From positions 56,787 to 120,786 of the forward strand of contig VCMS01000163.1 in NCBI GenBank assembly GCA_022539475.1: a stretch of DNA of 64,000 nucleotides. Direction: 5' to 3'. Shown piece by piece: positions 42,686-64,000 of the stretch (position 1 is its first letter; each line of letters begins with the position of its first letter). This DNA comes from Gracilaria domingensis (lineage: Eukaryota; Rhodophyta; Florideophyceae; Gracilariales; Gracilariaceae). The notes under the pieces were generated by a model. The model worked only from the letters and a program-made list of their open reading frames with translations, searched no databases and had not been told where the DNA came from. The position numbers and the translations under genes were made by a program.

Positions 42686-42850
42686 AGCACATCGTCCTCC
42701 ATGAAAGAGTTCCTGGGAAGTTTTGTTGCACAGGAAGAAGCAAACTTCATGGTTGCGTACGTTAGGTTATGCGCAGCTGTCTGTTGGAGAGAGACAGCTG
42801 TTGCAAAATTTCCCATTGAGGAGAGCATCTGCAGGACCTAAGTGACAAGC

Positions 42851-45905: not shown

Positions 45906-45934
45906 TAATAAACAATAAATTTATGCTACTATCT

Positions 45935-46255
45935 CTAACCAACCTTCCGAAAACCAGCTATGACATGAGCTGGGTTACTCGAGCCAAAGATGGCAGATCC
46001 TGCAACTGAAATGTTTGCACCGGCCTTCACTACTGCTTTCACAGTACTCAGTCCAATACCTCCATCCACCTGTATCCCTATTCTTGGGTACAACTCCCTT
46101 GCATGTCGCACCTTATCAAGAACACCCTCCATAAACGCCTGTCCTCCAAACCCTGGCTCCACCGTCATCAACAATAACATGTCTACAACTCCTTCCTTCA
46201 TAAGTGCTTCTACGACCTTTATAGACGTATTCGGGCACAATCCAACTCCATCCTT
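45935..46255 (-). pseudogene. C-terminal half of ribulose-phosphate 3-epimerase
   Basis: 107 codons matching the second half of the epimerase barrel: VDMLLLMTVEPGFGGQAF (the conserved metal/phosphate loop), then IQVDGGIGLSTV and ANISVAGSAIFG. The open frame ends at a TAA just upstream (46256-46258), and no first half is visible in the next 400 bp of the minus strand. The full protein is about 220-230 residues, so half is missing. A splice acceptor could lie at AAAAG before GATGGAGTT, but no donor exon is seen. Most likely a truncated copy of a Calvin/pentose-phosphate gene. Confidence 0.8.
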
Positions 46256-46652
46256 TTAATTATGGCAATCCGATTGAAGCTATAAAACCCGTTCACCTCA
46301 TTTATGAAGCCAAAATGGCTCTTTTCATCCTGTATTCAAGCTCCCCGTAACTCGTACTTTACAACTACTTTACAACTCAGGTTCGAAATCAGTTTCATTC
46401 ATTGCACACTTTCTACTGTTCCACCTACCTTTCATAAAACATCATCACACTTTGTGGCTTGTCGTCTCATACAAGCCCTATCATTCATTCAGTACAATCA
46501 CATATCATACATTTCGCTCACTTTCACAAAGTGAACCATGTTCCCGTTCTGCGCTTCCCAACCGTTTGTACTTACGTATCACTCTTTACCCCAGCAGTTC
46601 CCCGCTCCATCTTCCCTTTTTATCGTCACACAAAAACAATCGAACACTTGCA

Positions 46653-47555
46653 ATGAACTCCCAGTCCGACATGCCTCCCACTCCGCCTCCGAGTCCCAGA
46701 TACTCCGACGTCCCTCAGGCCTCATCTCCCGCCCGAAGGACTCGGGCCGTTATTGTTGGAAGGGGGCGTATAGGTACCTTGCTGGCGAACGAAGAAGATA
46801 CGGTCATTTCCGCACTCGAATTCTGCAGCATGGCTGCTACCTCTCATCTTTCTGATGTACCGATACTAGTTTGTGGAAGAACGAACACCCTGGAGACCGT
46901 AATTCAGGCTTGCCCTTATTCGCTCAGAGAGAATCTCGTTTTCTTCCAGAATGGAGACATCATACCATTGCTTTCGAAGCTCGGTGTGGACAAATGTTCA
47001 AAAGTTGTCCTATACGTTGGTGTCCCCTCAAGAAACGCAGCTCCGCAGGATGGTGTCACTCCTCAAAGTCCGGATGGTCTCACTGTCGCAACAGGAAAGT
47101 GGGCCTCCAACGTTGCAGACAGGTTTAGGTCTATGGGTCTCACTTGCGGGGTTGTCGACGAAGACACATTTCTCGTAAGCTATTATGAGAAGCTCGTGTG
47201 GCTATCAGCGTTCAACATCGTCGGGGCCTCAAGAGGTCTCATTCCTATGGACGTAGTCGCTACGGAGTGCAGTACGGTTGTGCTCACAATAATGAAAGAG
47301 CTGTTGAAGATAGTTTCGCTTAAGACAGGTACTACTTTCAACCTGGAAGAGACCGTTGGGCGACTTCTTGCATATGGGAAAACTCTCGTTGGCTTCCCTA
47401 CTTCTTTCTCCGACTTTCAGTTTAGGAACGCGTACTTCTACGACTTTTCCCGCCAAGAAAGAAACATTGTAGGCGGTGACCCCGCTCCTTTTCATACAAA
47501 CTACGTCAACGTTGTTAAGGAAAAGTTAACCCCCTCCCCATTCCCCCAGCTTTGA
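46653..47555 (+). CDS. Ketopantoate reductase-like NAD(P)-binding protein
   Basis: 300 residues from the ATG at 46653; the frame is open further upstream but that part reads as UTR. After a Pro-rich start (residues 1-28) comes a Rossmann motif AVIVGRGRIGTLLA (GxGxxG), VLYVGVPSRNAAP in the position of the second nucleotide-binding strand, and a helical C-terminal domain with LAYGKTLVGFPTSF. The architecture resembles ApbA/PanE (2-dehydropantoate 2-reductase) and related oxidoreductases. The classical catalytic Lys/Glu pair is not confidently placed, so the substrate is open. No introns, no targeting signal. It lies in tandem with the HAD-like gene downstream. Confidence 0.6.
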   Translation: MNSQSDMPPTPPPSPRYSDVPQASSPARRTRAVIVGRGRIGTLLANEEDTVISALEFCSMAATSHLSDVPILVCGRTNTLETVIQACPYSLRENLVFFQNGDIIPLLSKLGVDKCSKVVLYVGVPSRNAAPQDGVTPQSPDGLTVATGKWASNVADRFRSMGLTCGVVDEDTFLVSYYEKLVWLSAFNIVGASRGLIPMDVVATECSTVVLTIMKELLKIVSLKTGTTFNLEETVGRLLAYGKTLVGFPTSFSDFQFRNAYFYDFSRQERNIVGGDPAPFHTNYVNVVKEKLTPSPFPQL

Positions 47556-48182
47556 GGTTAGAACACATGACTTTTCGGTGTTGTAAACCTTTTAGAGATA
47601 GTTAAACATAAAAGTTACTTTATCGAAATGACCTGTTCCTATTACATTACTTATATTGTTCGTCCTTCTGTGGTTCAAATATGCCCCTTCAAATCCTACA
47701 TCCCTTATCACTAATACTTCGCTAAGATTTTGCTAGATAGAAAATGGTCATTCCATATCATTAAAGTGCACGATACTAGTAACGAAACAAGTACAAAAAT
47801 TGTGATATTTCTGAAGAACTAAGCGTTTGCATTACTTGGGGCACCCGTATAAAGTAAGGTAAACCTTTTATGGGTTTCAACCCGTAATGGAGGTTGTTTT
47901 ACTCTTCTTGATTTCTAAGCTCATGTTAAAGATATTTACAGTTTTCTTTACCCACTTGAACCCGTACATATAATTTATGACTAAATCATCCTTTCTTTAC
48001 TTCAAATCGATGCAAAAACTTCTCCTCCTAGTAACGTTTTAAAACAGTACTACAATACCCGTATATGGTCGTTCTTAGACTCTTGTTATACTACGAAACA
48101 CCTTGTGAACATCAATCACATCCTTCTCATTCGTATACCCACACCCATTTGCAAAACGAACCCTTTCGAAAGCTTTCAAAAC
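47556..48182. other. AT-rich spacer, no gene
   Basis: Promoter and 3' flank only; no protein-like frames seen. Confidence 0.4.
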
Positions 48183-49055
48183 ATGTATAAATCAGAAGTT
48201 GGAGTCCAAGAAGTAACTCCTCAGCAGCTGGCTAGCGAAATATTCGAAAATGGCTACGCCGTGATTAGTGCTGTTGACGGTACTCTGAAAAGAGCTGGGG
48301 AGAACATTCCTGCCGAAACAGTCAAATGCATGAAGTACATCAACGCACTCGTTGGTTTCGGAATTGCTACTGGGCGAGATATAGAGGATGCCGAGAGTTT
48401 CATGGAGCACCTGGGTGGCTACGCTTTTGGCATCTCTGGAAACCAAGGCGCACGGGTGAGATTATCCAATGGTACCGAAATTGATCAGGACCTTGACAGG
48501 GAAGGCTACGAAAGATGTGCAGCCGAACTTGAGAGACTTGCACTCTCCTTAAATGAATCGCACGGACTTCACGAAGAGCGTCAACAAGCAGTGGTGAGCA
48601 CTAGAAAAGACAGTGGACTCCCTAACTTCACGTACAATGGACTGTCGAAGTGGAAAACAGAAGTTAACTCCGGTATTTCAAAAGTGTTGACGTCCTTTCC
48701 GAACCTGGTTGCGTACCCTCAAGATGAAAACTGTGACATAGGGGACATTCGTTTCACGAAAAATAGTGGAGCGCTAGCCTTGGTTGAAAACGACCCCCAG
48801 TTCGACACACATTTAATCGTTGCTTTCGGGAATGCTTCCAATGATGGCCCTCTATATGAAATGGTAACCCTGGCAGTTCATGTGAAGGGAGAAGACCATC
48901 CAGCAGCGGTAACATATCTTGTTGATGGCGTGGAGGACGTGCATGAGACCATCAGAAGGGTGGCAGAACTGTACGGGTACAGAAAATGCAAGTATCAAAG
49001 GTTTAGAAATGCTCTTGGAATTTGTTTCAAGTGCTACGATGCCTTTAATACTTAG
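48183..49055 (+). CDS. HAD-superfamily protein lacking the nucleophilic Asp (copy 1)
   Basis: 290 residues from the ATG at 48183, which aligns with the start of its paralogue. The layout is that of Cof/trehalose-phosphatase-type HAD proteins: motif I region ISAVDGTL (29-35), motif II FGIATGRD, a cap domain, and a motif IV-like FGNASNDGP. In active HAD phosphatases motif I is DxDGT; here the first Asp is Ala30. The acid/base Asp (D32) is kept. This predicts no classical phosphatase activity; a binding or regulatory role is possible. It is convergent with the paralogue at 49108-49947, about 50 bp apart. Confidence 0.65.
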   Translation: MYKSEVGVQEVTPQQLASEIFENGYAVISAVDGTLKRAGENIPAETVKCMKYINALVGFGIATGRDIEDAESFMEHLGGYAFGISGNQGARVRLSNGTEIDQDLDREGYERCAAELERLALSLNESHGLHEERQQAVVSTRKDSGLPNFTYNGLSKWKTEVNSGISKVLTSFPNLVAYPQDENCDIGDIRFTKNSGALALVENDPQFDTHLIVAFGNASNDGPLYEMVTLAVHVKGEDHPAAVTYLVDGVEDVHETIRRVAELYGYRKCKYQRFRNALGICFKCYDAFNT

Positions 49056-49107
49056 CTATGATATGAGATCTCAGTAATAAAAGTGTGGTATATATCTCAA
49101 TACCCTT

Positions 49108-49947
49108 TTATGAATCATGGTGGTTTTTATCGTGCTGCTTTTCCTCGTAGCCGTACAAGAGAGCCACCAACATAATTGTCGAATATACATCCTCCACGCT
49201 TTCGAACAGGTTGTGTACTCCACCCGGGATACAATCTTCTTTGACGTGAACGCCGTACACGCCTACCTCATGCAAAGGCCCGTCGCTCAAAGCACTTCCG
49301 AAGGTCACGACGTCATCCGTATCAATAAATCTCGGTTCATTATCCACAAGATTTGCTCCTCCGCTTCCTTTTGTGTATCGCTTGTCCACAATTTCGCAAC
49401 TTTTATCGCCGGGATAGATAACAAACGCATCCATCTTCTGCAACAAGTCCCCAATAGCAGAATCCACTTCTTCTTTCCAGTGCCACAGTTTGTTGTACAC
49501 GAAATTGCGAAGGCCACTATCACTTCTGGTCTCCACAACCCCCTTGTCATCATCATTCACAATACCATGCCTCCTATTCAAATCCCTTGCCAGGAACAGT
49601 AGTCCGTCAACAGTGTGGTCAAGGGTGTGATCATTGAATGCAGCATTAATTTCCCTCTCGTCAGAGAAACGCAGGAAAGCTCCATGATTCGCCGAGACAC
49701 CAAACTTATAGACTCCGAGTCCTTCCATTTTCCCCTCCACTTCGCCCACATCACCCCCTGTGACAAGTCCGAAACCAACACGTTCGTCAATGAACTTCAT
49801 ACACTTCACACCTTCTTCTGTAATTGACTCTCCTTCTCTTCTCAACGTTCCATCAACGGAACTTAATATACCGTAACCATTGGCATATATGAACTTAGAC
49901 AAGGTATTTGGTGAAATTTCCGCCAAGTCTCTCTGTTCCTCTGCCAT
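49108..49947 (-). CDS. HAD-superfamily protein lacking the nucleophilic Asp (copy 2)
   Basis: 279 residues from the ATG at 49947; an in-frame ATG at 50019 would add 24 residues, but the shorter form matches copy 1 exactly at the N-terminus. It shares the full layout with copy 1: ILSSVDGTL (Ser in place of the nucleophilic Asp), FGLVTGGD in place of ATGRD, SANHGAFLRFS, and FGSALSDGP near the end. Motif II and motif IV are more degraded than in copy 1. The common loss of the nucleophile shows it happened before duplication. Confidence 0.65.
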   Translation of the reverse strand: MAEEQRDLAEISPNTLSKFIYANGYGILSSVDGTLRREGESITEEGVKCMKFIDERVGFGLVTGGDVGEVEGKMEGLGVYKFGVSANHGAFLRFSDEREINAAFNDHTLDHTVDGLLFLARDLNRRHGIVNDDDKGVVETRSDSGLRNFVYNKLWHWKEEVDSAIGDLLQKMDAFVIYPGDKSCEIVDKRYTKGSGGANLVDNEPRFIDTDDVVTFGSALSDGPLHEVGVYGVHVKEDCIPGGVHNLFESVEDVYSTIMLVALLYGYEEKQHDKNHHDS

Positions 49948-50283
49948 TTTTCCTGATACAGTCACCATACTGCCACAAGTACCGCATAGACAAGAACTGT
50001 ATAGACTTCTCAGTTTCATACTTCTCTTAAAAGCAACCTTAAGTGCAGTTTCAGAAATGTTAGGACGCTACATGTTCAATTGCAAATTGACTGGTGCCAC
50101 CAATGATGCTAACGATACCGAGCATTTGGCATGTTGCAATTAGACGCAACTGGACCAAAGACGTTTGACATTTGTTCAATTACCAGCCTGCCGCACCTTT
50201 TCTATGTTCATATGTATAGCCTTGTAATAGTATACTACTCTTAATACTCGCAAGACACACATAATTTACTAATCATCTCATTC

Positions 50284-52243
50284 TCATCCACTTCGAGGCG
50301 CTCGCAGCCTCATTATTGGCAAATCGTCATCACTACTACTCTCGAGCACTTCGGTTCTACCGGCGTCCGCTTCCACACCAATCTCCACGACCACTTGGTC
50401 TTCGTCCATGTCAACCGCCCCACCCTCCTCATCGGACAACAGTTCATCCTCCGCCTCCTCCTCCTCGTCACCATTGACAAACTTGGGTCGCAAATCCCGC
50501 ACCCGATGAACAGCATCGGTAGTGCGTAGCCCTCTGGTACCATGTACATGTGGTATCTAACCAGCAAATCCATACACTCGGGCCTATCCACCTTGTCCTT
50601 CCCACTTGCTCCAGCATGTGTCACATCACCACGGCCCACGAATACAGAGTACGGTGGGATGATTATCTTCTTCGCTGGATACACCTCCGACATCACTCGC
50701 AACTGTTGGTTGTTCATCCCCACCAGTTGATGGCTTCCAGCGCTCACCCAGAGAGGAAAGCCCTCTTTCCCAGAGGCCATTACAAAGTATCCGGGGTTGC
50801 CAGTATTCATTGTTTCCTTCGTAACCAGACCACTGAAGTCGGTGTGCAGCGTCTGGCGCTTGCACTTTCTCGTCGTCCCCAGAAATCGACCACCAGTTTT
50901 CGGAGTGTACATCTTCACAGCTTCCCTTTCATTGTCCCATAGTCCCAAAGCCGCAGCAATTGTACCCATTCGAACATCAAGTAAAGCACGCGACCTTACA
51001 ACCCACCTGAGCTCCTCATTATCCTCCGGCTTCTCCACCGTACCCCAACGTGTCGACATCACTCTCCCCTCAAATGGTCCATCGCTACCGTCCTTCCATC
51101 CTTCATCATCGTTGATTATTTGAACAAACGACTTCTGTTCCTCTCCTTTCCGTATATCCGGCATCGCTCCATACTCATTCTCGAAGAAGTCCACCAACTT
51201 CCCCGACACATCTCCGAACTCCCGAACTTCTTCCAACTCCTCCCATTTAGGGACACCATTATCCGTCGCAAAACCATCAAGCACGCAATATCCATTCTGC
51301 CTTAGTTCAGCTTGCATTCGGGCGAAGAACATTTGCCCAAATTCGTCATGCTCCTTCGCAGCAACCCACAGCACCTCTTCATCATCCATACCTGTCGGTC
51401 GAGTACGAGGATACTGCATACCAAATGTCTCCGCCCGTAGGCGATGTTCAGCCCTTGCAGCGTGCCAAAAGACAAGATGGTGTACATCTCTGAGATTCGA
51501 GACACTTAGCAGCTCCGACCTATGTCCCTTCGGCAAGTGAATGACTCTGAACCAGGGGTCCTTGTGCTCAATTACGTTCTTCCCTTGCCATTCCTGCGGT
51601 CTCAGCCTGGCATACCCGCACCATGATGGGTTCGGTGGGCCATCATATGGGTCACTTCGAACAAGTCCGTGCTCCTCAGATTCCGGAAGAGCTGTAGGTT
51701 ACTCGTCATCAAATGACCCCCCACCTGTCTCTTGCTGATCGTCTGGCGCAGCATCTTTCTCGACGGTGACAACGCGTGGAACTGTCACAGCAAGAAGCTC
51801 TTCGTCATCCACAAATGCAGAACTGCCTGCGTTCTCTGCATTCGCTCCCTCTCCCAATGCCACGAACTGAACCTTCATCGACCTTCCTCTCAGCACATGT
51901 TCATTTAGTTGAGACATCAGGTCATCCGGTGTCATGCTGTTCAGAGTAGATCTCATCTGTTGTGTGAAAGTCTTTCTCCGTTTCTTCCTCGGCGGAGCCC
52001 GCTGTTCTTCTTCAGAGCTATCCAGAACTTCTATGGCACCTCGATTTCGGCCGTGCTCATTTCCCTATAACTCACCTGCGCCCGTTCTCGTGCACTTCTT
52101 CGCGGCTCCCCTTCTTCACTGGCAGATGTTGCAGCAGCAGCAGCGGGAGTCCTCCTCTTCGTCACGGACTGCTTCACTGGTGGGGGGGCGGAATTACCTT
52201 GAGCATCGTCCGCAATCGATTCTGAACGGAAGTCGTGGCAGTT
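50284..52243 (-). CDS. Candidate 2OG-Fe(II) dioxygenase (double-stranded beta-helix), frame-disrupted
   Basis: The main body (51536-50517) has the spacing of a 2-oxoglutarate/Fe(II) oxygenase: LHTDF with H and D at about 50,846 and 50,840, distal H in GRGDVTHAG at about 50,618, and an arginine in VRYHMYM at about 50,558 for 2OG. NGYCVLDGFA near 51,290 resembles the PhyH-type start. It continues upstream in the same frame across a TAA (51699-51701) through a basic, low-complexity N-terminal region. A possible 74-nt intron (52002-52075, GTGAGT...CAG, phase 0) lies there. No ATG is found before 52243. Near 50,518 a -1 frame change leads to an acidic tail ending at 50284. Family assignment is by motif spacing only. 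Confidence 0.55.
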
Positions 52244-52288
52244 CTAATTGAGCTCGTCCGCTCCGAACACGCGGCAAAGTGTTGAAGT

Positions 52289-54191
52289 TCACAACTTGTC
52301 CCAAAAGAACTGATACACAGCTGCGTTGTTGTCTAGGTCTTCAACGTCATCTTCATTCGATGGAGCAGAAAGACTGACTTCTCGTTTCAGGAACACTTCC
52401 ATGGACTCTTCCTCGTTCAGTTCATTCCTCACTGCTCTAGCCGCGCGGAACAGAGACACTGCTCTATCATAAAAGAAACCTCGAACCTCCTCAAAGCTTT
52501 TCCATTGCTTTGTCTTCGTCGACTTGCCCTTCAATAGAAACATCTGAAGACAATCAAGAATGAAGGAAAACTCCTCGGCATCCAAAACATATAGCGGAGT
52601 ATGGGACAGATCTGTGAGACCTACGTCACTCACACTCTCACATATATCCTCGAAATGGGCCAGCATTCCCTCACGAGACATGAGTTGCAGGGCGACATTG
52701 GCATATCTCAGGTACTGACGCTCTTGCACAGTCCCAATCAGTTGGCTCTCCTTCAACACTTCTGTCACTTCTGCAGGATCCACGTCTGCCGGCGTCACCC
52801 CCTCAACATCTTCAATTAGAATGGCGACCACACTAACTATAGAGTGTATCTTGTCTGCAAACATCATCCTTCGCATGGTACTCGTCGACTCATTGAGGTA
52901 CGAAGCAACACATAACAATTCCTTCATCCCAATGGGCCTCCCATCTCTTCGTATCAGCAGATTGCAACGCCAAAACTTGGCTAATCGCTTCCACTTCGGT
53001 GCACCAGTCGCTGCCAAATATTGTATAGCTTTCAGACGATGCAAACCATCTACAATGAAGCACTTCTTGTTAGGCGTCCCTTGTCAGTATCCCTCTCTCC
53101 CGTAGTAGCATCTTGTAAGGCCACTACTGGAGAACCCATCGACTGCAATATCCCCCGCTCCTCCATACTCTTCACAAGGGCTTCAACGTGGCGTTTACTT
53201 ACTCCACGGAGTAAATTGGGCGGAGTGTCCACCAGGTGATGTCAACAGTAACAACAACCATCCGGTACTGATTGAGGTTCACCTTTGGTACCTTCTGAAG
53301 AATTCGTCTGTACGTCTTGCTCCGAGTAGGTGTCCCTTGTGTTCCAGACCGCTCGCCAGAAACACTTGAACGTGCCATTCTTGCGGACAGAAGCACAACG
53401 TCATCGTCCTGCTGCTCCGCAGTTTCTGGTGCAGTTTGGGGTACAGATGGACCAGCTCCTTGCGCGGATTGCGCATCCGCGTCTGGAAGGGGACCTTTCA
53501 TGATCTCATCTTCCTCCTCTTGCACAGCCGTCCCCTGCTGAACCGTCTGTTTCGACGCAGAAGATCCCCTTCTGTCGATGGTCTGATTCATCGCAGGAGA
53601 AGCCCTTTTCGACGCAGTGGAGTTCGTAGCGGAGGTAGACTTTGTTTGACCTGTCCGCTTCGTAGCTGGGGATGCTCTCGTCTCCATAGACCGCTTCATA
53701 AAGAGACGGACCTGCCGCGGAGGTGCTACTGATGCGCTACCTCTCGGTGTTGATGAACTTCGAATTGGCTCCGTGCGGCTTGTCGGCGTCATCACCTCAC
53801 TCATAGCGCTCACCGTTCCTCGCTTCGACGCCGGAATGCTGGCTGCCACCGGTTCCATCATTTTCTCATCCCAAGGAGCGGCCGTCCGGAGATCCTGGAT
53901 ATATTGTGGAAGATCCAGGCCCTCCGCCCGGTAAGGGTAGAACGTCTGACCGCTTCGACTGATGAGAATATTATGAACCACCACAAGACCTGGGTCTAAT
54001 TGCTTCCCGTGCAACTCGCGGCGTAGAACACTTCCAATTCCATGCAACAACGCTTCCCCGACTATCACCTTTCCTTCATCCTCAATATCCATCTGCAGAG
54101 AAACCCGCATTCCACCTTGCAATAATCGAGTGCTCCGCCGAGTGCGAGGAGTCACGCTTTGCGTACGCTTTCGAACACGAGTTGGCTTCAT
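52289..54191 (-). CDS. ParB/Srx-like domain protein, frame-disrupted
   Basis: Starts at the ATG at 54191 with a basic N-terminus, then a long Ser/Thr/Arg-rich linker (about 53,800-53,300). The ParB-like domain begins near 53,240: VSKRHVEALVKSMEERGI, then FIVDGLHRLKAIQYL with the family GxHRxxA motif near 53,050, followed by a helical C-terminus with LCVASYLNES. Two -1 frame changes, near 53,230 and 53,079, interrupt the domain. In bacteria ParB binds parS and spreads on DNA for partition; ParB-like domains also occur fused to phage DNA methylases. Such a domain in a eukaryotic element is unusual. The first exon and its promoter arm are shared by symmetry with the methyltransferase gene. Confidence 0.65.
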
Positions 54192-54250
54192 GTTGAACAG
54201 CTATTGCAGTGAAAGGTGTATATCAACAATACGCTCGCTCGGACGATACA

Positions 54251-54341
54251 ACAACGGAGGCGAGCCTTTAAATGGCGACTTACGCTGGGCACCCCCGCTT
54301 TCGGCAGCTCCTCCCAGCGCACTGCCAGTCTCGTCCGTGTC
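54251..54341 (-). promoter_or_regulatory. Left 91-bp inverted promoter arm (ParB-like gene)
   Basis: Exact reverse complement of 55610-55700. It contains TTTAAA (54266-54271) about 75 nt upstream of the ParB-like ATG, which probably acts as a TATA-like element. Confidence 0.75.
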
Positions 54342-54613
54342 CTGTCCGTGGCCGCTCGCACACTGATTGTACGCTTTAGAGTCGTGGAGTTCGCGCAATG
54401 ATGACTCACGCGAGCAATGGTCGCGTTCTCTAATCATGCTCTTCAAATGCTTTGCATAGTAGTCAAGAGTACACTCATTCACTTCCATGTACAGCCTACT
54501 CCCGCCAATACACGTGGACAGCGGCGCCAACGTACCGGCGGCCGGGTGTACGAAATCACTGCGCGGCGGCGTGTTTTGCGAGGTCCCGGGAAGGCACCGG
54601 AATGTGCCGAACT

Positions 54614-54683
54614 GCCCGCGGCGGGGGGGGTCGGTCGTGTTAGGGTAGGTACCCTAACACGACCGGACCCCCCGCCCGCGGGC
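54614..54683. repeat. GC-rich hairpin H1
   Basis: About 70 nt palindrome with GCCCGCGG/CCGCGGGC ends and a GTGTTAGGGTAGGTACCCTAAC centre. Confidence 0.9.
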
Positions 54684-54718
54684 ATAAAATCGCACATTTT
54701 CAAAAATCGCCAAAACGT

Positions 54719-54786
54719 GCCGCGGGCGGGGGGGTCGGTCGTGTTAGGGTAGTACCCTAACACGACCGACCCCCCCGCCCGCGGGC
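54719..54786. repeat. GC-rich hairpin H2
   Basis: Same design as H1 (centre TTAGGGTAGTACCCTAA, one base shorter). H1 and H2 are separated by an A/T-rich spacer ATAAAATCGCACATTTTC. Confidence 0.9.
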
Positions 54787-54824
54787 ATAAAATCGCACAT
54801 TTTTCAAAAAATCGCCCAAAACGT

Positions 54825-54896
54825 GCCCGCGGGCGGGGGGGGTCGGTCGTGTTAGGGTACCTACCCTAACACGACCGACCCCCCCCGCCCGCGGGC
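54825..54896. repeat. GC-rich hairpin H3
   Basis: 72-nt palindrome; centre TTAGGGTACCTACCCTAA, where the central hexamer is in the opposite sense to H1. Confidence 0.9.
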
Positions 54897-55182
54897 ACGT
54901 TCTGGCCACATTCTGGCACCCTCCGGAGACCTCCCAAAACACTCCTCCCGGCACTTCCTGTACCCACTGCGTCACCTTAGTGCACCATCCCGTCATCTTA
55001 ACCCTCCAGACACTCCCTAATTTCCGGGATGGTGCACTGAGGTGACCATCCCGTCTTCTCCACCCTCCAGACACTCCCTAATTTCCGGGATGGTTCACTG
55101 AGGTGACGCAGTGGGTACAAGAAGTGCCGGGAGGAGTGTTTTGGGAGGTCTCCGGAGGGTGCCAAAAAATCGTCGAAAACGT
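54897..55182. repeat. Central inverted and tandem repeat between hairpins
   Basis: Two ~70-bp direct copies (GGGATGGTGCACTGAGGTGA... around 54,985 and 55,075), flanked by inverted copies of a longer unit (CTCCGGAGACCTCCC... at about 54,921 and its complement at about 55,147). The unit also occurs at about 55,392-55,425. The region therefore has a rough two-fold axis near 55,000. Confidence 0.75.
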
Positions 55183-55254
55183 GCCCGCGGGCGGGGGGGT
55201 CCGGTCGTGTTAGGGTAGGTACCCTAACACGACTGGACCCCCCCGCCCGCGGGC
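55183..55254. repeat. GC-rich hairpin H4
   Basis: 72 nt, same arms and TTAGGGTAGGTACCCTAA centre. Confidence 0.9.
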
Positions 55255-55292
55255 ACATTTTGGACGATTTTTTGAAAAATGTGCGATTTTAT

Positions 55293-55364
55293 GCCCGCGG
55301 GCGGGGGGGTCCGGTCGTGTTAGGGTACCTACCCTAACACGACCGGACCCCCCCGCCCGCGGGC
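55293..55364. repeat. GC-rich hairpin H5
   Basis: 72 nt, same arms and TTAGGGTACCTACCCTAA centre. The five hairpins share the complementary 7-base G/C runs next to TCnGGTCGTG. Confidence 0.9.
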
Positions 55365-55609
55365 ACGTTCTGGTCACATTCCGGCGCCTTCCGGAGACCT
55401 CCCAAAACACTCCTCCCGGCACTTCCGGCAGTGATTTCGCTGCACACGCCGTACACATATATCAAACTAGAGAAAACTAGCGCTTCACACCCACTTGATC
55501 CGCGACTTTTAGCACAATACGGGACCGTTGCAATAGCTCCGAATCGCGACGTGGCCGACACGCGACGCTATCGCTCCGACACGCGACGCTATCGCTCCGA
55601 GCGGACACG

Positions 55610-55700
55610 GACACGGACGAGACTGGCAGTGCGCTGGGAGGAGCTGCCGAAAGCGGGGGTGCCCAGCGTAAGTCGCCATTTAAAGGCTCGCCTCCGTTGT
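55610..55700 (+). promoter_or_regulatory. Right 91-bp inverted promoter arm (methyltransferase gene)
   Basis: Exact reverse complement of 54251-54341. TTTAAA at 55680 is only about 35 nt from the methyltransferase ATG at 55714. The two arms make a symmetrical bidirectional promoter around the hairpin array. Confidence 0.75.
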
Positions 55701-55713
55701 TTGCGCTGAAGCG

Positions 55714-58238
55714 ATGGATTCCACCGATGTTGGAGAGGAGATACATCCTATCGACATGAGTGCTCCGCCTCCGGCGTTCCATGCATATGTCAGACTTTTC
55801 TTGGTTCTTCGCGATGCTTTGGCAAACAGCGATGGAGGCCCTGATCGGCCACGGGACGTGGGGTTTAGAGGGTTAATAGAGTTCTGCGCCGAGAACTATA
55901 AGGATATTCCGGAGGCAAGGAAGATGTTTGAGGAGGCCACTAACTCCAAGAACCTGCAGAACTTGACACTGCAACAGCTGCGAAAGAGTGTTGTGAATAA
56001 CAAACCTGTGGAACAGCGATATCTTGTAACGAAGCTTCTTGACAAGAAGGACGGGGATGAGGACCAGAGACTGCGCGATTTTTTCCTTCTCTCTATGGAT
56101 ATGGGTATATACCTACCGGTGCGATGCCTGGTTGGTTATTTCATGACCAGGAGAAAGCAGGTTCTGAAGACGACAGTGTTCATCCCACCAACAGCTGTGA
56201 ACCCATTTGAGGTCGTTATATACTTATCATACCTCGGCCACATAATGGGAGAGAACGACAACATCCGAATGATGAAGAAGAAACAACCGAAAAAGAAACG
56301 AAAAGTGAACCATGCACCAGCTGTGTACATACCCACTTTTACGTCGTTCTCCAAAGACAACTGTGATCGACTGGGATTCGGTATCAGTGAGGTCGTATGG
56401 GCATGGAGTTGTTTTGCGGCTCATCTTGGATACACGAACGTTCAGCACATGGTGAAACCATACATTTACATGAATATGCAGACGTTGAAGTATACAGCGC
56501 TAGAGACACGGGAGTCTGGTTATGCCCCGCCGAGCCAGAGTACTCGATTCAACACAAAGGATGTGCCACAGAGCAGTACTAGTGGATCGGTGGAGACCTT
56601 GAGTGATGAATGCGATACAAACCTGCGAATACTGGCTAAGGAGTTTTTGACAGACCTCGAAACCATATGCACCCACGATAGCCTCTATAGCTTACGGGTT
56701 GATCAGATGAGGAACTGGATAGAGTTTTCGGAGATACGGATGGATACCGTATCTAGCTCTGACTCCGGTGAGTTGCCTGCTCGATTTCAGAAGTTTTCGG
56801 AGTTGCTATGGAAACCGATACAGGATATGCGTCATGCGGCAGGGTTCCATGTCGGCATTCACGCGAAACCTGATATTGAACTGACGAAAACCCCTAAAAC
56901 TTCCGGTAATGCCGAACCTTCTTCGACCAAGTCTGCCCCACCCCCACCTCGTCGAGAGTATATGAACCTCGTGAGCTCCGATAGCGACGAGTTCGAGAAG
57001 CCGGTGAATCTTGCGGAGCATGAATCTCGGGTTGCTGGTTACAACATCCAAAAGACTGGTATTGAGCCGCCCATGAAGGGGATATCCAGTCTCCTTCGAA
57101 TGAATATGGACAAGGTGTGGAAGGGGATGAGAAAGTCACACTTTGTAGCGTACAACTGTGACATGAAGGACCTGAGGCACACACACGAAACGTTTGTGAA
57201 TCAGAGTGAGATTTTATGGGGTGAGGCACAGCTTGTCCTAACAGACCCTCCCTTTAACACTCGAAGGAAGAGGAACAAACGGAATAGTGGTCACGATGTC
57301 TTCAGTGAGGAAGACATGATCCGTACGGCTGACTTAATAAGTTCCGCGCTTCGGTCAGGTGGGCACTTCATTATATTCTGTGCCATGGCACAGTTTCATG
57401 TGTGGCACAGGATACTTTCGGAAACGGCGAGTACGAAAGATGAAGCTGGAAGCGAAGGTAAACCAGAACTCATGCCTTCGTTTAAAGTGGATGCGAATCC
57501 ACTGGTGTTCATCCGGGATCGCAGTAATGTTGGAGGGAATCCACGGAAGTTTGGGATACAGCCCGTAACGGAGTACGCCGTTCATGGGGTGAAGCGTGGA
57601 TTGCGACCATCGGAGGAAGCCAGTCTTACTCCATTTGAGGAGAACAATTTCATTCCTTCCACTTTCCCGGCTAACAGGAATGTAATTGACCGGGTGCCCA
57701 AACCGAGGGCGGGGGAGTGGTTGACATGGAAGGTACATGAGCCAGGTAGCTCAGTACCAGGTGGGCAGTACATAAGACCGGAGCAGAAGTCGAGGGAGTT
57801 GATGAAGGAGTTGATATGTCGCTTCACAAGACCGGGTGATCTTGTCATGGACATGTTCGCGGGAACTTTTTCTACGGGTATGGCGTGCCTATCGCTGACA
57901 AAGCATAGGAAGTTCTTGGGGTGCGAGAAGAATAGGCCATGTTTCAGCCATGCGAAGCACCATCTAACGACTCTTATGGCCGAAGTTATTCGGGGGGGAA
58001 GAATGACATCCTGGTTGAACAGGAGGTGGTGGATGCGGCTTCAACGACCTATGAACGGGTTCCACATCGGGACCGAGGTCGGCTTGAATGGGAGGCTCCA
58101 TTTGGTTACCCCCAGTACCAAGTGATGCCTGGACATATTACTCAGTTCCTAGGAAGATACTGGAAGGACTGGGACTTTGTCGACAAGTGTGGAGAGCGTA
58201 CTGTAGATCTTTGGGAGGGAAGTACCGAGGAGCTCTGA
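55714..58238 (+). CDS. Beta-class DNA methyltransferase (N6-adenine or N4-cytosine type), frame change at end
   Basis: Starts at the ATG at 55714. Residues 1-480 are unrecognised and mostly helical, with a Lys-rich stretch near 190. The catalytic domain has motif IV first, LTDPPFN at about residue 511, and the AdoMet-binding motif I late, DMFAGTFSTGMA at about 710, followed by FLGCEKN. The order IV then I is the beta class of prokaryotic-type DNA methyltransferases (N6/N4 MTase fold). The 0-frame ends at 58125, but a -1 change in the G7 run at 57992-57998 leads to a protein-like tail of about 80 residues ending at 58238. The G-run also forms the heptamer G GGG GGA in frame, which could permit ribosomal slippage. 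Nuclear; target sequence unknown. Confidence 0.78.
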
Positions 58239-58243
58239 ATCTT

Positions 58244-58849
58244 ATGGATATGCATATGCTGTTGACTGTTGAAGCCAATCGCTATCGCTTACATATAGCA
58301 TCTTCTAAGATCCGACATCCCCGTGCTGGTATGGGGGTGTTCACGGAACATAAGATATTGGCTGGGGAAACTATCTGTCATTTCTATGGAACTTTGGTAT
58401 ACACGGATCTGACGAACCGGAAGGAAAGACACTTAACGTATGGAAGTGGCTGTCTCGGAGCAACTCCAGTGCGGTACAAGTTGTTTTCTATGATGGTCAC
58501 TGTGACTGGTACGGAGTTTCTGCACCTGAGGAACAGACCAGGACAGGCTCAGGATAGAAAGGAGAGCGAAGTCTACATTGTCCCGGCGCCTTTTTGTATC
58601 GGGGGCTACATTAACGACGCCGGATATCATGCCGGGGATCCCGATTTATCGGAGCCCCGGTCAAACAGGACTCGAAGTGCCAATGTGCAGGTGGTGGAAG
58701 CGAAGTCCGTGATACAGTTCAAGTCAGACCTTTCTAACTATGCTCTACTTCGTTGTAGAGCAGTAAGAGATATTGAGAGGGGCGAAGAGTTGTATTTCGA
58801 CTACGGAGAGCAGTACGCCTGGGACTGGGCTCTGACATTGGAGCAATAG
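58244..58849 (+). CDS. SET-domain protein lysine methyltransferase
   Basis: 201 residues from the ATG at 58244, only five bases after the methyltransferase stop at 58238. SET landmarks are GMGVFTEHKILAGE (29-42), IGGYINDAGYH (119-129, where canonical enzymes have NHxC: here Asn-Asp) and RGEELYFDYGEQYAWDW (179-195) with the conserved catalytic tyrosine. There are no pre-SET or post-SET cysteines, as in small SET-only enzymes. Likely targets are histone lysines, but non-histone targets are possible. The near-zero spacing to the previous frame raises the possibility of a joint transcript or a fusion protein divided by a lost base. Confidence 0.78.
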   Translation: MDMHMLLTVEANRYRLHIASSKIRHPRAGMGVFTEHKILAGETICHFYGTLVYTDLTNRKERHLTYGSGCLGATPVRYKLFSMMVTVTGTEFLHLRNRPGQAQDRKESEVYIVPAPFCIGGYINDAGYHAGDPDLSEPRSNRTRSANVQVVEAKSVIQFKSDLSNYALLRCRAVRDIERGEELYFDYGEQYAWDWALTLEQ

Positions 58850-59098
58850 ATGAGTTCAGTAGCGAATAAAAGTAAATATGCTTGTGAGTGTTGCAGCTGC
58901 CTGCAATACGCGTTGTTGTACATGTACACTGGAGCTCTTCATCTGTAACGGCGATATTTGCGACCCATTGGGCACCTCAAATTCCTAAAAAGCAGGAACT
59001 GCGGAGTCTCCCGGAATATCTGAACCATGCACCCCCCCCCCCACCCCCTCCCCCCCTCCCCAACAATTTCGTTTCATTACCCTGTTTATCTCCACAGC

Positions 59099-61494
59099 AT
59101 GGGTATAACGCCGAGAAAGCGAAATAGTACGCAGCGGAACAAGAGTGGACAGAAGAAGAGAAGAGCATCGGATGATACGAATCAGGCTACAAGCACCGCA
59201 CTTCCTAAACGGAAGTCGTCCTCGACGAAGGAGAGAGTCAGTGGGCGTCCTTCTACAGGACTCTCTCGCCCATCTCGCAGCGGAGCGTCTTCCGGGATTG
59301 CGTCAAGAATTCGTGGATCAGCGAACGATGTCGTGCCGTCAACTGCCGATAATGCAAATCGTGCATCTGTCTCTGCTCCTCAAGAAGATGAGGTAACTCG
59401 GCCCAGCGGGTCAGGACAGGAGGGCATGACAACTGGAACCGAAGAGGTTCGTATGACACCAAAACCTTCATGTCCCCGGCCGATATCGAAGACCGGAGCT
59501 ACTGGGGCGCGGGTTACGCCGCCCAGTGGATCTGGACAACAAGGGACAATGACGAGAAGTCGTGAGAGTCCTAGTATATTAAGATCGTCACGTCCATCCC
59601 TCTCTTCTAGAACTGGGGCCGCTATGAATCGTATCATGCCTCGCAATGGGTCCGGACAAGGGAGAAACACAATAAGAAATCGAGAGACAACTGATAGACG
59701 AGTTACTTTTCGACCTTCCCCTCTTTCCAGAACGGGGGCCGTTGCAGCTCGTACGAGGCCCAATTCATCTGATATACCATGCCATGGAGGAGGACATACA
59801 CGGGAGTTGGAGCTCGGAGCCGTGCCAAGGGTGGACACAGAACGCCTGCAGCCTCTCGTGGCTAAGGCTATGGCACATGAGGATAGTTCCGATAACGAAA
59901 TAACACCGAATCCTGCGGCATTACCGGGGCCTGTCGCCGAAGAAGCTAGGGAAATAACGGAAGATATCCAAACTGGTGTGAATTCAAGCTCTATGAACAG
60001 ACCTGATCTTTTAAATGAACTGAATTGCTTGAAAGAAAAGGTTAAGACGCTACAAGAGGACTTGATGGTTCGGGGAATTCTAGTGAAGGTCGCCCAAGAG
60101 CAGAGTACGGCTTTGAAAAAGAGGCTTGAAGAGAAGGATCTAGTCATTGAAGGGCTAAGAGGGGCACTGAAACAGGAGGGAGATAGGAGTACACGTGCTG
60201 GTGAACCTGGGCAGACAGGTCGAAAGAAGCATAAAATTGAGGTGTGCGACGAGTTTCGAGGGGTTGCTCGAGCAGTGTATCACAACATGCTGACGTGGGC
60301 AAGGAGAGAAACAAGTGAGCTATGGCTCGAAGGTGAGTCGCTCACCCGAAATTGGGGTAACCGTGCCGAGAAGGTGGAAGACGCAACTGAGAGTGGGGAA
60401 GGGCTTATTGAGCCGGAGGAAGGTGGTTCATACATGGTTCCTAAAAACCCCGTGGAGCTCTTGGGCAGTTTTGGCATGTTCACACCGTCGGTAGAGGGGG
60501 GCCAGATGCTTTGCTGAAGAAAATGGTTGAAAGCGAGTTGAAGGAGTTGAGCTGGGAAGGTATTAGAAAAGCATCTCTTACCGACAGGTGTATACTGGAA
60601 CTTTGTGCAGATATGTGCCTTAGGCAGAGAATGCGGCAGACCATGAGTGACGTCGTGGGCGTTCGTAAGAGAAATACGAGGGATAAACTATTTCTGCTCC
60701 TGGGGTACGATCTGATTTGGAGAAGAACAAAGCTGGTAGAAGAGAATGCTGACGAACTCACAATGCAGTTGAAGGAAGCGCAGGAGAACATACTGCGTCT
60801 TGACGAAAATGGTGTACCGAACACTTCATGGTGGAGAAAAGCCCCATTTGTTCGTCTAAAGTACTCCAATGCGGACAATGTCGAGGATATGCCGACGGAA
60901 GATCAAGACTTGTTCTTCCGAAACCGTGTCGGGGTACAAGTGCTGAAGGAGTTTATTGGGTATGATGTGGAAGACAAGGATACGGGCACCTTTTTAGATG
61001 GCACAATACTGTTGCTCGCACGTTTGGACGCTTGGGTGTTGACGGTTGTGAGCCTTCTAAGTACGGATGTGTCAAGGGGTGGCCAGAGACAGAAACTGTT
61101 TACAAAGAAGTTTGCTGAACTGCTACCTCTGTGTTTAAAGAATGTTCTGGGGGATGTTAGGCAACATGTCTTGAGGACCAATTCCAGCGAGTTTCATAAT
61201 TTTGGAACGACAACGGAAGATTGGACTAAGGTTCTTGGTAATGACATGAGAGAGGCTACATTTGGATATCGAATGCCGTCGAACGGAAGACTTTACCTCA
61301 CTGTGAAAGAACAATTTTTTATTGACAGTGTGAGCCGAAGATTGGGGTCTATTAGCGATTGCTTCGTTGGTGAATGCGAGGAAGGGGATATGGAGTTCAA
61401 GGAAATGGACATGAACGATTTCGGAATTAACACAGGATCACAAGAAAAGGCACCACAAGGTGAACATGTAGAAGATGGAGCCCTTAATGTTTAA
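59099..61494 (+). CDS. Repeat and coiled-coil protein of unknown function, one frame change
   Basis: From an ATG at 59099 to 60517 and, after a -1 frame change at the G6 run 60496-60501, from 60511 to 61494. The N-terminus (residues 1-90) is basic and Ser-rich with KRKSSS-type nuclear signals. Three tandem ~41-residue repeats follow (59402-59761; each with SGSGQ and SRTGA-like cores). Then come an acidic stretch and a coiled coil (about 60,000-60,180, LNCLKEKVKTLQEDL). The C-terminal half is a helical domain of about 330 residues that I cannot assign. The gene is preceded by a C-rich tract (59029-59060) and a CACAG/C acceptor-like site at 59093-59097, so a 5' UTR intron is possible. It ends 11 bp inside the convergent transposase. 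Confidence 0.6.
59402..59761 (+). repeat. In-frame tandem repeat, three ~120-nt units
   Basis: Units at about 59402-59521, 59522-59644 and 59645-59761 each contain GGGTCAGGACA/GGATCTGGACA-like and CCGGAGCT/TGGGGCC-like blocks. They are diverged, so the duplication is old or under selection to vary. Confidence 0.65.
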
Positions 61495-64000
61495 GGCTGT
61501 ACAAGATCAACGTGCTCAGTTGGTCCTTCATCTGAATCATGATAGAATCGATTGATGTAGAATCGGTGTTGAACCATTGAAGTGGAGGACAAAAAGGTGG
61601 AGCAGGGTAGTTTGATCGAACAACATGGACAGTTCCCTGTAGTGCAGAAGCCGGAACCATCCCGTACCAAGGAGTTAACTCTACGATAGTCTCCGCTTTG
61701 GAATGACGAGGGAACGGAAGAGTGTGGTTCTTTTCATCGTTTGTAGCCCACCGTAAAGATATGCATTTCAATATGTGGTCGATGTTTGTTGCGGGGGGTA
61801 AAACCTCGAAATACCGGACGAATGCCACCTCTGGTGCGGTAAGTGCAGAATCAAGGAGAGATATTCGAATCAGAGCGACTACCTGGGCAACCCAAGTCTC
61901 TGAATCTTCTCCGCTTACCAATACAGTGGAAAACTTTGGCTTTCTACTGGGACCAAATGCTGGAGAAGCGAAGACACGTTGGATGATGGGGTATTTGGGT
62001 CGTCCCAGCTTAAGTGCCTTAGAAGACGAATCGAAGTGTTCAAGAGTCGGAACGAAACCGCCTTTCACGAGGCCGAATTCACCAGAGTTATCCTTGTCTT
62101 TTCTGGGAAGTATGTAATAGAGTGCTCATCCAGTGTTTCTTTCACGAGACTGAGGAAAGGAGGAAGGGCCTGTTCACCAATTTGATCAAGAATCGACCTT
62201 GTGTCCGTACTTGAGAACATTTCTCTAACAGCAGTCCATGTTTTTGAACTGGACATACTTGAAACACAATGTTGAAGAGCTCGTAAAGTGAAAGAACGCC
62301 CTCTCATTGCAAACCGAGGAAGCTGTGTGGAAGTTCCTGGTAAACCTGGATTACGCTGGTAAGGAGTATTGCCATTCCATTGCTTTCTAACATGTCCGTG
62401 CTCAATGGAGCGAATAGTCTCCTCCACAGCCGTTGCTGTTCTTCTGGACGTCTTTTTGTAGTGTCTTTTAAATAGCAGGTGTGCATGTTCGTATATGCCT
62501 GCGTCGTAATACTTGATACTTCCCAGACGGCGAATATCGTCCACGAGATGATCGAGAAGATGAAACTTCAGAGTTCCCAGTCTGGAGGGATGAAAATCCG
62601 CCAGAGTCTTTGTTGCGGAACGCTTGAAGGCTTCAATCTCCGAACTAAGACACAGGAGAGAGCTTTCAGTCCAATACGGGTCACGATTGTATCTGAATAA
62701 GGTCGAGAGCAAGTCCGAGTACTGAGAGAAAACGGTTGTGATTGGGGCAACGTCCTGTTCTCCACAGCATATGTCAAAGAATGCTCCTATGAAGGGAAAG
62801 ACCATGTCAAGTGCTTTGTAGTTTTTGGCCTCCAGCATTCCACGGAGACCGTCTTTCGTGAAGATACCATTCAAAGATTTGCCTTTCTCCTGCGTGGAGA
62901 AATCGATATGTAAACCTTTGGCAGGAGAATCGCGTTCTATGGCAGCTAGAATTGCGTTTGCATGGTTGAGGAGTTGGGTGCGTATCGTTCGAAATGAACG
63001 CGATGCAGATGTTCCTATTGTGGTGCACAGGGTGTCTGACTGCAGTCTCTCGATTGTGGCCGTTTTTATCAACTTTGAGATGCCGAGATGCAAGTTGTGT
63101 AATGGTTCGAATGAGAACAGACTGTATGGAGACAATCCCGGGATCATTCCAAGGCTTACGGAAGTTTCGAGGAACGAAGGAATGAGAGATATGGAATTTG
63201 AACGCATCAGAGTATCCGCTTGAGATCTCCTCTCCCTCGCACGACGTGGACGTCTTTCCGCCTCGTCTTTTTGTGCATGTTGCAAGATAGCTGTGTATGT
63301 CTTTCGGATGCTTTTCGTGTGCTTTTGAGAACGTCCGTTGAATGAGGTGGGAATAGGACTGCATAAAGATGAGCGAGGGGCTTTGCATCTATGACACGGG
63401 CTTTCCGTTTTGGTCCCATGAAGAATAGACAGAATGTCCTTAGCCTCAGGAATATCCGCACAATAACTTGCAAGCAGAGGATGGCACACTCGACTTAGTT
63501 TGTCTTCGCCGATGAACTGAAAACCTTTCTGCGTGAGATTTAGAATGGGCTCCAGGACTTGACGAAGAGATTCTTGAAGGATTTGCATCCTGGACTCGCG
63601 TAGAGACTTGCTAGAAACAAATGGCATTGCGTCTGCTTCAGATGCGGAAACCTCGATCAGTGTGGTAGGGAAGTATGCCACTACTGTGAGGTCATCACGG
63701 ATACACTTACGGCGAAGCTCGTCGGAGAAGTTGAGAAATATGAGGTGAAGAGGATAGGCGGTAACCGATGTTTGCTTTAGAGTTGTTGAAGACTTATCGG
63801 TGTATACCTGCAGAAGACCTACGAAAGATTCACTGTAACTTATTTCTTGGGAGTACCACACTATTCTACTATCCAAAGAGCCCATGACCATTTCCTTAAG
63901 TTTGAGGTGGCGTCTCTTGCGAGAGAGCCGGACATGGGGTGAGATATTTTCGTGGAGTGGGTCTGAGGTATAGGGTGGAAGAATGTGTTTTCGTTGTGAG
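61484..64000 (-). CDS. Plavaka/CACTA-like transposase (5' end beyond window)
   Basis: The minus-strand frame is open from 64000 to 62065; it then changes -1 near the T4 run 62099-62102 (A4 on the coding strand) and continues to the TAA at 61484. About 830 residues are visible. The first catalytic Asp is likely in VYTDKS (about 63,796). AYPLHLIFLNFSDELRRKC and the zinc-like CHRC (C at about 63,396) and FSFEPLHNLHLG match the order in Plavaka-type transposases of the CACTA (EnSpm) superfamily. The N-terminus lies outside the window, so completeness is unknown. It converges with the coiled-coil gene and overlaps it by 11 bp. Confidence 0.8.

What the first reader, a model, noticed from the sequence alone, without database searches (positions are those of the whole stretch)
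50284..64000. Transposon-like cluster carrying a DNA methylase, a SET enzyme, a dioxygenase candidate and a ParB-like protein
Seen: a Plavaka/CACTA-like transposase next to a beta-class DNA methyltransferase, SET protein, HxD...H...R dioxygenase candidate, ParB-like protein and a repeat/coiled-coil protein, with gaps of 5-260 bp (except the 1.5-kb divergent region). Known: dioxygenases of the TET/JBP family travel with KDZ transposons in fungi, and ParB-methylase pairs occur in phages. Inference: this element could write, oxidise or erase DNA marks, modify histones and partition or pair its own copies, so as to control its expression or that of rivals. I know of no described element with this full set.
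Basis: partly seen in the sequence, partly recalled or inferred. Interest (0 to 1): 0.92.

Follow-up and report, generated by a model that had tools for sequence, protein, structure and literature searches.

The report
Giant red-algal transposon carrying chromatin modifiers
A seaweed genome holds hundreds of copies of a very large jumping gene that carries what looks like its own chromatin-marking machinery, including a DNA-methylating enzyme joined to a second (SET-type) methylating enzyme in a single protein.

Summary
The window lies in a 77.9-Mb genome; the only outside relative found for the dioxygenase candidate is a Gracilaria domingensis protein. The cluster is part of one DNA transposon starting at window 43902/43903; one complete copy measures 22,931 bp. 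There are 561 left and 549 right ends genome-wide, none in controls. The "six genes" are fewer, larger proteins. The DNA methylase and SET domain form ONE 1,045-aa protein; 32 of 50 homologs carry both domains, including one from Chondrus. The ParB-like part and the HxD...H...R protein share one frame. The two fusion genes diverge from a 93-bp inverted repeat enclosing five palindromes, which number 1,549 genome-wide. Transposase and methylase-SET show purifying selection. Giant red-algal elements and ParB-methylase accessory proteins of algal transposons are already in print, so this is a new variant; I found neither fusion described. Some relatives lack the accessory genes, and the dioxygenase is unproven. 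Likely role: marking and controlling its own copies.

The parts
43903..64000 (+). giant Plavaka-class DNA transposon, window copy (left end at 43902/43903; cut by the contig end at 64000; complete copy C91 measures 22,931 bp)
   Evidence: left boundary at 43902-43905 in 20 of 20 scored copies; right boundary at one place, within about 15 bp, in 39 of 39 scored copies; C91 measured
43902..43920 (+). left terminal inverted repeat, ACGTCTGTGTTCTGCAAAG; right counterpart in other copies ACGTCTGTCTCTTGCAGAT (first A may belong to the TA target)
   Evidence: 561 left and 549 right ends at up to 2 mismatches, control 0; flanks
44372..45397 (-). left cargo ORF, 341 aa, no family above cut-off
45935..46240 (-). 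fragment of a ribulose-phosphate 3-epimerase gene (profile positions 114-198 of 198 only)
   Evidence: PF00834 5.4e-24; 150 copies scored of 450 candidates
46452..47555 (+). left cargo ORF, 367 aa, Rossmann-like by eye, no Pfam match
48105..49055 (+). HAD-like hydrolase ORF
   Evidence: PF08282 1.4e-10
49108..50019 (-). second HAD-like ORF; Ser where the first Asp of DxDGT is expected
   Evidence: PF08282 1.2e-4; motif reading
50284..54191 (-). gene for a ParB-like / HxD...H...R (candidate 2-oxoglutarate dioxygenase) fusion protein, broken by frameshifts in this copy
   Evidence: one frame from the ParB-type HR box to the end in L094 (924 aa to the locus edge); open frames up to 1,365 aa listed; phrog_3264 4.2e-4
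54192..55713 (.). divergent promoter/operator region between the two fusion genes
54250..54342 (+). 93-bp inverted repeat, left arm, 58 bp upstream of the ParB-dioxygenase start
   Evidence: 100% to right arm; also in C91
55609..55701 (-). 93-bp inverted repeat, right arm, 12 bp upstream of the MTase-SET start
54637..55340 (.). array of five GTGTTAGGGTA-n-TACCCTAACAC palindromes (starts 54637, 54741, 54849, 55207, 55317)
   Evidence: 1,549 sites genome-wide with up to 1 mismatch, control 0
55714..58849 (+). gene for a beta-class N6/N4 DNA methyltransferase-SET fusion protein (1,045 aa in L098); frameshifted in this copy, hence two ORFs 55714-58125 and 58088-58849
59027..61494 (+). repeat/coiled-coil protein(s), two overlapping ORFs 59027-60517 and 60511-61494
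   Evidence: no Pfam match; no sign of selection in the second ORF
61484..64000 (-). Plavaka transposase, C-terminal part (gene continues past the contig end); frameshift near 62068 in this copy
   Evidence: PF18759; ORF of at least 1,062 codons in C91; 69 copies scored, 66 of 69 without internal stop

Best explanation
SHOWN: a giant (about 23 kb) transposon with a Plavaka-type transposase has amplified to roughly 550 copies, many of them shortened, in a genome that I take to be Gracilaria domingensis. Full-length copies encode the transposase and two divergently transcribed chimeric proteins: a beta-class N6-adenine/N4-cytosine DNA methyltransferase fused to a SET domain, and a ParB-like domain fused to a protein with an HxD...H...R motif. 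Their shared control region is an inverted repeat enclosing palindromes that also persist in some shortened or diverged copies. INFERRED: the two fusion proteins act on the element's own DNA. The ParB-like part would bind the palindromes, as ParB binds nearby parS sites; the methylase-SET protein would write a DNA mark and a protein-methyl mark there; and the dioxygenase part, if it is one, would remove the DNA mark. The net effect would be a self-marking switch that keeps the element's copies expressed (anti-silencing) and limits or coordinates their transposition. The genome shows no C5 DNA methyltransferase match, so the mark is more likely the element's own 6mA or 4mC than 5mC.
Against: The ParB-dioxygenase gene shows only a non-significant trend (w 0.71, p 0.067) and the dioxygenase domain alone none (w 0.80, p 0.35). 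The dioxygenase has no Pfam match, no PDB sequence match of note and no usable model, and copy C91 has lost the HTD and distal-H residues. The ParB match is short and weak (residues 308-351, E 4.2e-4), does not include the HR box (residue 381), and Pfam finds no ParB domain. The SET motif usually read NHxC (recalled) is IND-type here, so histone-lysine activity is not assured. Palindromes need not be ParB sites, and C42 keeps both ends without them. Variant C27 has no match to the accessory genes, so they are not needed for every copy. No binding, methylation or expression data exist here.
Confidence: 0.5

Rival explanations
1. Self-silencing: the MTase-SET protein marks element copies for repression (a brake on transposition that protects host and element), and the divergent ParB-dioxygenase gene is the release or has another role.
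For: A bacterial-type N4C methylase in bdelloid rotifers has transposons among its targets, and SETDB1-type SET proteins are expanded there (PMC8885841, passages); here both domain types sit in one protein. Many near-identical copies coexist (97-100% among the 69 scored transposases).
Against: In bdelloids the enzyme is a host gene; here it is element-borne and evolves below neutrality within the element, which fits a benefit to the element at least as well.
Confidence: 0.25
2. Passive cargo: the accessory genes are captured or left-over sequence that moves with the element but does nothing for it, like gene fragments in Pack-type elements.
For: The element carries a truncated ribulose-phosphate epimerase fragment; variant C27 carries what reads as a phytoene desaturase fragment (by eye) and no match to the accessory genes; many copies are frameshifted or internally deleted; the second coiled-coil ORF and the dioxygenase domain alone show no selection.
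Against: MTase-SET has 50 homologs at 28-46% identity, 32 with both domains annotated, with invariant catalytic motifs, and evolves below neutrality within the element.
Confidence: 0.2
3. The accessory genes serve transposition or copy maintenance itself (for instance ParB-like pairing of ends or copies, methylation state licensing excision after replication), not expression control.
For: ParB-like domain next to palindromes; methylation-gated transposition is known for bacterial elements (recalled). Shortened copy C84 and variant C27 keep palindromes and ends.
Against: C42 lacks palindromes yet keeps both ends, so they are not strictly needed in cis; no ParA-type family match among the ORFs scanned.
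Confidence: 0.15

Closest known systems
Giant EnSpm/Plavaka elements with accessory genes in red algae (Bostrychia moritziana, Petroll et al. 2025, Curr Biol; paper not held, known here only from the citing passages of PMC12477816 and from recall)
   Same: Red alga, giant size, EnSpm/Plavaka-type transposase, several accessory genes, large share of the genome (the Plavaka name and the genome share are recalled).
   Different: The paper could not be read, so gene content could not be compared, and it may already describe part of this set; this report gives a Gracilaria family with its ends, target sites, two fusion proteins and palindrome operator.
Sola1-1_Ec32 of Ectocarpus, 21.5 kb, with a 1104-aa ParB-like + N4C/N6A methylase accessory protein (PMC12477816, passages seen)
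   Same: Giant algal DNA transposon; ParB-like and N6/N4 methylase domains in an accessory protein on the strand opposite to the transposase.
   Different: Different transposase superfamily; there ParB is fused to the methylase, here ParB is fused to the dioxygenase candidate and the methylase to a SET domain, in two divergent genes.
TET/JBP-bearing Plavaka transposons of Agaricales fungi (PMC12730594, introduction and passages seen)
   Same: Plavaka transposase plus a (candidate) 2-oxoglutarate dioxygenase accessory gene; short (2-3 bp) target duplications.
   Different: No Tet_JBP match here; termini CGTCTGT..ACAGACG rather than TGT..ACA or CATCA..TGATG; no methylase or SET is named for the fungal Plavaka elements in the passages seen.
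HarbingerS and oomycete MuDR transposons carrying SET methyltransferases (cited in the introduction of PMC12730594)
   Same: DNA transposon carrying a SET domain gene.
   Different: Other superfamilies; no DNA methylase fusion mentioned in the text seen.
Bdelloid rotifer N4CMT (PMC8885841, passages seen; PDB 8s9m)
   Different: Host gene with a chromodomain, not a mobile-element gene with a SET domain.
Amoebidium 'Plavaka giant repeats' (PMC11244446, passages seen)
   Different: Many of the genes described there are tyrosine recombinases; that host has 5mC.

Membership tests
Plavaka DNA transposons | transposase of the Plavaka domain family | tested here: met
   PF18759 1.2e-18 (window) and 9.8e-19 (C91 copy)
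[quoted passage not shown]
   strings CHRC and HLLDH are present in the C91 ORF, but the catalytic D and E were not assigned
Plavaka DNA transposons | 2-3 bp target-site duplication | tested here: met
   TA on both sides in 10 of 19 end pairs, 10 of 20 with C91, which is CA/TT. The inner A and T are part of the search pattern and carry no weight; outer T on the left in 13 of 19, outer A on the right in 14 of 19. Two non-TA pairs, C142 and C157, share a right flank, so some pairs are not simple insertions
PlavakaA / PlavakaB subgroups | termini TGT..ACA (A) or CATCA..TGATG (B), per PMC12730594 | tested here: not met
   termini (A)CGTCTGT..ACAGACG(T)
KDZ (Zisupton-type) | 8-bp target-site duplication (PMC12730594) | tested here: not met
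   no duplication longer than TA visible in 19 pairs
beta-class N6/N4 DNA methyltransferase | permuted order, DPP[YF] before the SAM motif; CcrM-like fold | tested here: met
beta-class N6/N4 DNA methyltransferase | which base is methylated, or activity at all | not testable with these tools
   both N6A (6pbd) and N4C (8s9m, 1boo) enzymes match
SET-domain protein methyltransferases | SET domain with ELxxxY-type catalytic tyrosine region | tested here: met
   PF00856 1.7e-7; tyrosine in 36 of 40 rows, missing in P0022, P0024, P0034, P0050; the fold itself was not among the structural rows
SET-domain protein methyltransferases | canonical NHxC motif (recalled) | tested here: not met
   reads IND-type in most of 40 rows
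ParB / ParB-CTPase fold | sequence match to ParB-like proteins | tested here: inconclusive
   phrog_3264 4.2e-4 over residues 308-351; an IVDGLHRLKA box (GxHRxxA type, recalled) at residue 381; no Pfam ParB match and no PDB match
ParB / ParB-CTPase fold | nucleotide binding and specific palindrome binding | not testable with these tools
   needs protein
2-oxoglutarate/Fe(II) dioxygenases | HxD...H...R residues | tested here: met
   HTD and distal H in 20 of 20 fetched loci; lost in C91; which Arg would be the catalytic one is not settled
2-oxoglutarate/Fe(II) dioxygenases | double-stranded beta-helix fold | tested here: inconclusive
   model failed, pLDDT 28.9
TET/JBP | Tet_JBP sequence family | tested here: inconclusive
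   no Pfam match for the protein; genome search uninformative because the control was silent

The most novel reading that the evidence does not exclude
The element carries a complete, self-contained epigenetic switch: one polypeptide writes a non-5mC DNA mark and a chromatin mark together, while the divergently transcribed ParB-dioxygenase reads the element's palindromes and erases the DNA mark. This would be a mobile writer-reader-eraser system working in a host that lacks C5 DNA methylation, and it would have let the element take over about a tenth of the genome.
Probability: 0.25. Interest if true: 0.9.

Novelty: new variant of a known kind. Interest (0 to 1): 0.72.

Why it matters
If the reading holds, a eukaryotic transposon has fused DNA-marking and chromatin-marking enzymes and carries its own operator, so that how a mobile element controls its own epigenetic state could be tested with two proteins and one short DNA palindrome. 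The DNA methylase-SET fusion family, with 50 homologs found here, is in itself a new lead on non-5mC DNA marks in red algae and on the direct coupling of DNA and chromatin marking.

Tried and rejected
The protein search with the 803-aa methylase found nothing, but its words came only from the first 500 residues, outside the catalytic domain; the region search that covered the domains found 50 homologs. The earlier miss is therefore not evidence of absence. The dioxygenase search found only the Gracilaria protein P0001.

Structure of the dioxygenase from six near-identical copies failed and was not used. Viral contigs held no relative of either fusion and the prokaryote genome collection none of MTase-SET; these scans reach close relatives only. 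Rfam and tRNA scans of the window were empty. Tet_JBP and MT-A70 genome searches rang in no control genome, so they say nothing.

A first selection count without a transition/transversion correction gave lower ratios (transposase 0.49, ParB-dioxygenase 0.54, MTase-SET 0.42, coiled-coil 0.80); I rely on the corrected one with wrong-frame controls, which lowers ParB-dioxygenase to a non-significant trend. Of the 166 MTase-SET variants 134 are private to L099; dropping that copy leaves 32 variants and w 0.30, p 6.4e-4.

Co-occurrence by position: 14 of 56 methylase hits have a listed head-to-head dioxygenase hit at 3.6-4.8 kb and 8 of 56 a listed convergent transposase hit. The lists are capped best-hit lists, so these are lower bounds, and the 42 of 56 without a listed dioxygenase prove nothing either way; whether the genes always go together is not settled.

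I first took the base A before the left end and T after the right end as constant (19 of 19); that is circular, because both bases are in the search patterns, and I dropped it. A virus origin, an assembly chimera and chance adjacency were considered and rejected because defined ends and colinear copies recur at many sites. The SET domain did not appear among the structural matches, because the methylase fills the list.

The Bostrychia paper could not be read. Papers were searched; none of their listings or the passages seen names a methylase-SET or ParB-dioxygenase fusion in a transposon, which is a statement about those searches only.
Full report
1. What the sequence shows. The window is C163:56787-120786 of a 77.9-Mb, 680-contig assembly. 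The only outside relative found for the dioxygenase candidate is a Gracilaria domingensis protein, P0001 (98% identity), and the published genome of that species is 78 Mb (PMC10388701, passage). I take the host to be that red alga.

2. The element. The transposase search scored 69 places at 97-100% identity (of 1,890 first-look candidates; 66 of 69 without an internal stop), so the count is a lower bound. Of 30 fetched loci, 24 are colinear with about window 60573-64000 at 98.4-100%; L002-L004, L022 and L024 show internal deletions and L019 is cut by its contig end. A query of window 30001-50000 gave 20 scored copies, all starting at window 43902-43905. The right side of copy C91 gave 39 scored copies, all ending within about 15 bp of the same place. 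Between these ends C91 measures 22,931 bp, counted from the A before CGTCTG to the T after CAGACG. Terminal patterns with up to 2 mismatches occur 561 (left) and 549 (right) times; the reversed control patterns occur 0 times.

3. Target site. Among 19 end pairs, TA stands on both sides in 10; the outer T on the left is present in 13 of 19 and the outer A on the right in 14 of 19. C91 itself is CA/TT. The pairs were chosen from zero-mismatch listings whose patterns include the inner A and T, so only the outer bases inform. C142 and C157 share a right flank, and C142 and C166 a left flank, so some pairs are nested or rearranged. A TA target is the best reading.

4. Copy structure. Pairing the zero-mismatch ends that were listed (the first 100 places of each side) gave 21 pairs of 9.2-31.7 kb, mean 15.7 kb, 7 of 21 at 19 kb or more; the longest may not be a single element. 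With about 555 elements this is roughly 8.7 Mb, about 11% of the assembly, as an estimate. Three fetched shorter copies differ. C84 and C42 are internal deletions of the same element. C27 shares the ends, the palindromes and a diverged transposase region but has no match to the accessory genes; it carries what reads as a phytoene desaturase fragment (by eye). The left cargo includes a truncated ribulose-phosphate epimerase, 150 copies scored of 450 candidates.

5. The two fusion proteins. In the window the methylase (803 aa) and SET (253 aa) are separate overlapping ORFs. A genome search scored 56 methylase copies (of 1,017 candidates). In 16 of 56 the open frame is listed as 1,055 codons, 9 of these 16 without a stop; the top five hits match the frameshifted form to its end. 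Copy L098 gives one ORF of 1,045 aa with PF01555 and PF00856. Fifty homologs at E 1e-3 or better, 28-46% identical, were found; 32 of 50 have both domains precomputed, including Chondrus crispus P0008; Pyropia vietnamensis P0051 has the methylase domain. The fusion is therefore ancestral and the window copy is the broken form. Likewise the ParB-type HR box and the HxD protein share one frame in L094 (924 aa to the locus edge), with open frames up to 1,365 aa listed elsewhere (84 copies scored of 738 candidates). The window and C91 copies are frameshifted at different places.

7. Selection. With a transition/transversion-corrected neutral expectation and two wrong-frame controls: transposase w 0.58, p 0.0011 (31 copies, 149 variants); MTase-SET w 0.52, p 3.8e-5 (6 copies, 166 variants); methylase domain alone w 0.40, p 3.2e-4; N-terminal part w 0.65, p 0.042; SET domain alone w 0.70, p 0.40 (10 variants); ParB-dioxygenase w 0.71, p 0.067 (22 copies, 107 variants); dioxygenase domain alone w 0.80, p 0.35; second coiled-coil ORF w 1.10, p 0.66. 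Wrong frames gave w 1.04-1.71 for transposase, MTase-SET and ParB-dioxygenase as wholes; for the small parts they scatter more widely (0.36-3.89). Of the 166 MTase-SET variants 134 are private to L099; without it w is 0.30, p 6.4e-4.

8. The control region. The two fusion genes start from the two sides of a 1.5-kb region. A 93-bp inverted repeat (arms identical in the window; C91 arms 100% and 98.9% to the window arm) stands before both start codons. Between the arms lie five palindromes GTGTTAGGGTA-n-TACCCTAACAC in G+C-rich hairpins. Genome-wide there are 1,549 such sites with up to one mismatch, control 0. Counts in copies: window 5, C91 4, C27 3, C84 4, C42 0; none in 43.9 kb of window flank or 8.4 kb of C91 flank. 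That these are binding sites for the ParB-like domain is inference, from the usual position of parS near parB (recalled).

9. Host marks. No C5 DNA methylase match was found in the genome (0 candidates), while the control rang in 10 of 14 genomes, all prokaryotic. MT-A70 and Tet_JBP searches are uninformative. A TET-like action on 5mC is therefore less likely than an action on the element's own 6mA or 4mC, if the protein is a dioxygenase at all.

10. Known relatives. The Ectocarpus study (PMC12477816, passages, and part of the reference list) describes a 21.5-kb Sola1 element with a ParB-methylase protein. [quoted passage not shown] That paper is not held; I recall its abstract as attributing Bostrychia genome growth to giant Plavaka transposons. 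Kojima 2025 (PMC12730594, introduction and passages) describes Plavaka with TET/JBP and cites SET-bearing HarbingerS and MuDR elements. Amoebidium has Plavaka-flanked giant repeats (PMC11244446, passages). The ParB-fold survey (PMC12704722, passages) reports phage ParB-N6N4 methylase fusions, and the word dioxygenase does not occur in its main text. The element is thus a new variant of a known kind, with two fusions that I did not find described.

11. Verdict. The finding is real, larger than reported, and interesting. Confidence is high for the anatomy of the element and for the MTase-SET fusion, moderate for ParB, and low for the dioxygenase and for any stated function.

Noticed in passing
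L073:839-1180: A 9.2-kb variant of the element (C27) carries a stretch that reads, by eye, as a phytoene desaturase fragment, suggesting capture of host gene pieces.
   Followed up: no
window 45935-46240: Truncated ribulose-phosphate 3-epimerase (profile positions 114-198 of 198), 150 copies scored of 450 candidates.
   Followed up: partly
window 48105-49055 and 49108-50019: Two HAD-like ORFs: the first reads AVDGT in the window but DVDGT in copy C91; the second reads SVDGT in both copies, so the usual nucleophile Asp is replaced.
   Followed up: partly
window 36483-37967 and 38227-38838: ORFs that read as Gypsy-type reverse transcriptase and integrase pieces (by eye).
   Followed up: no
window 25833-27536 and 28601-30493: Two similar ORFs that read as animal-heme-peroxidase-type proteins (by eye).
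   Followed up: no
window 1-16000 versus 16001-64000: Base composition is higher and more uneven in the first 16 kb (0.495-0.692 G+C per 2 kb) than after it (0.406-0.578).
   Followed up: no
G000 contigs C28, C163, C211, C591, C323: The same frameshifted methylase form (matching the 803-aa query to its end) is found at five places, so a broken form seems to have been copied, perhaps by transposase supplied in trans.
   Followed up: partly
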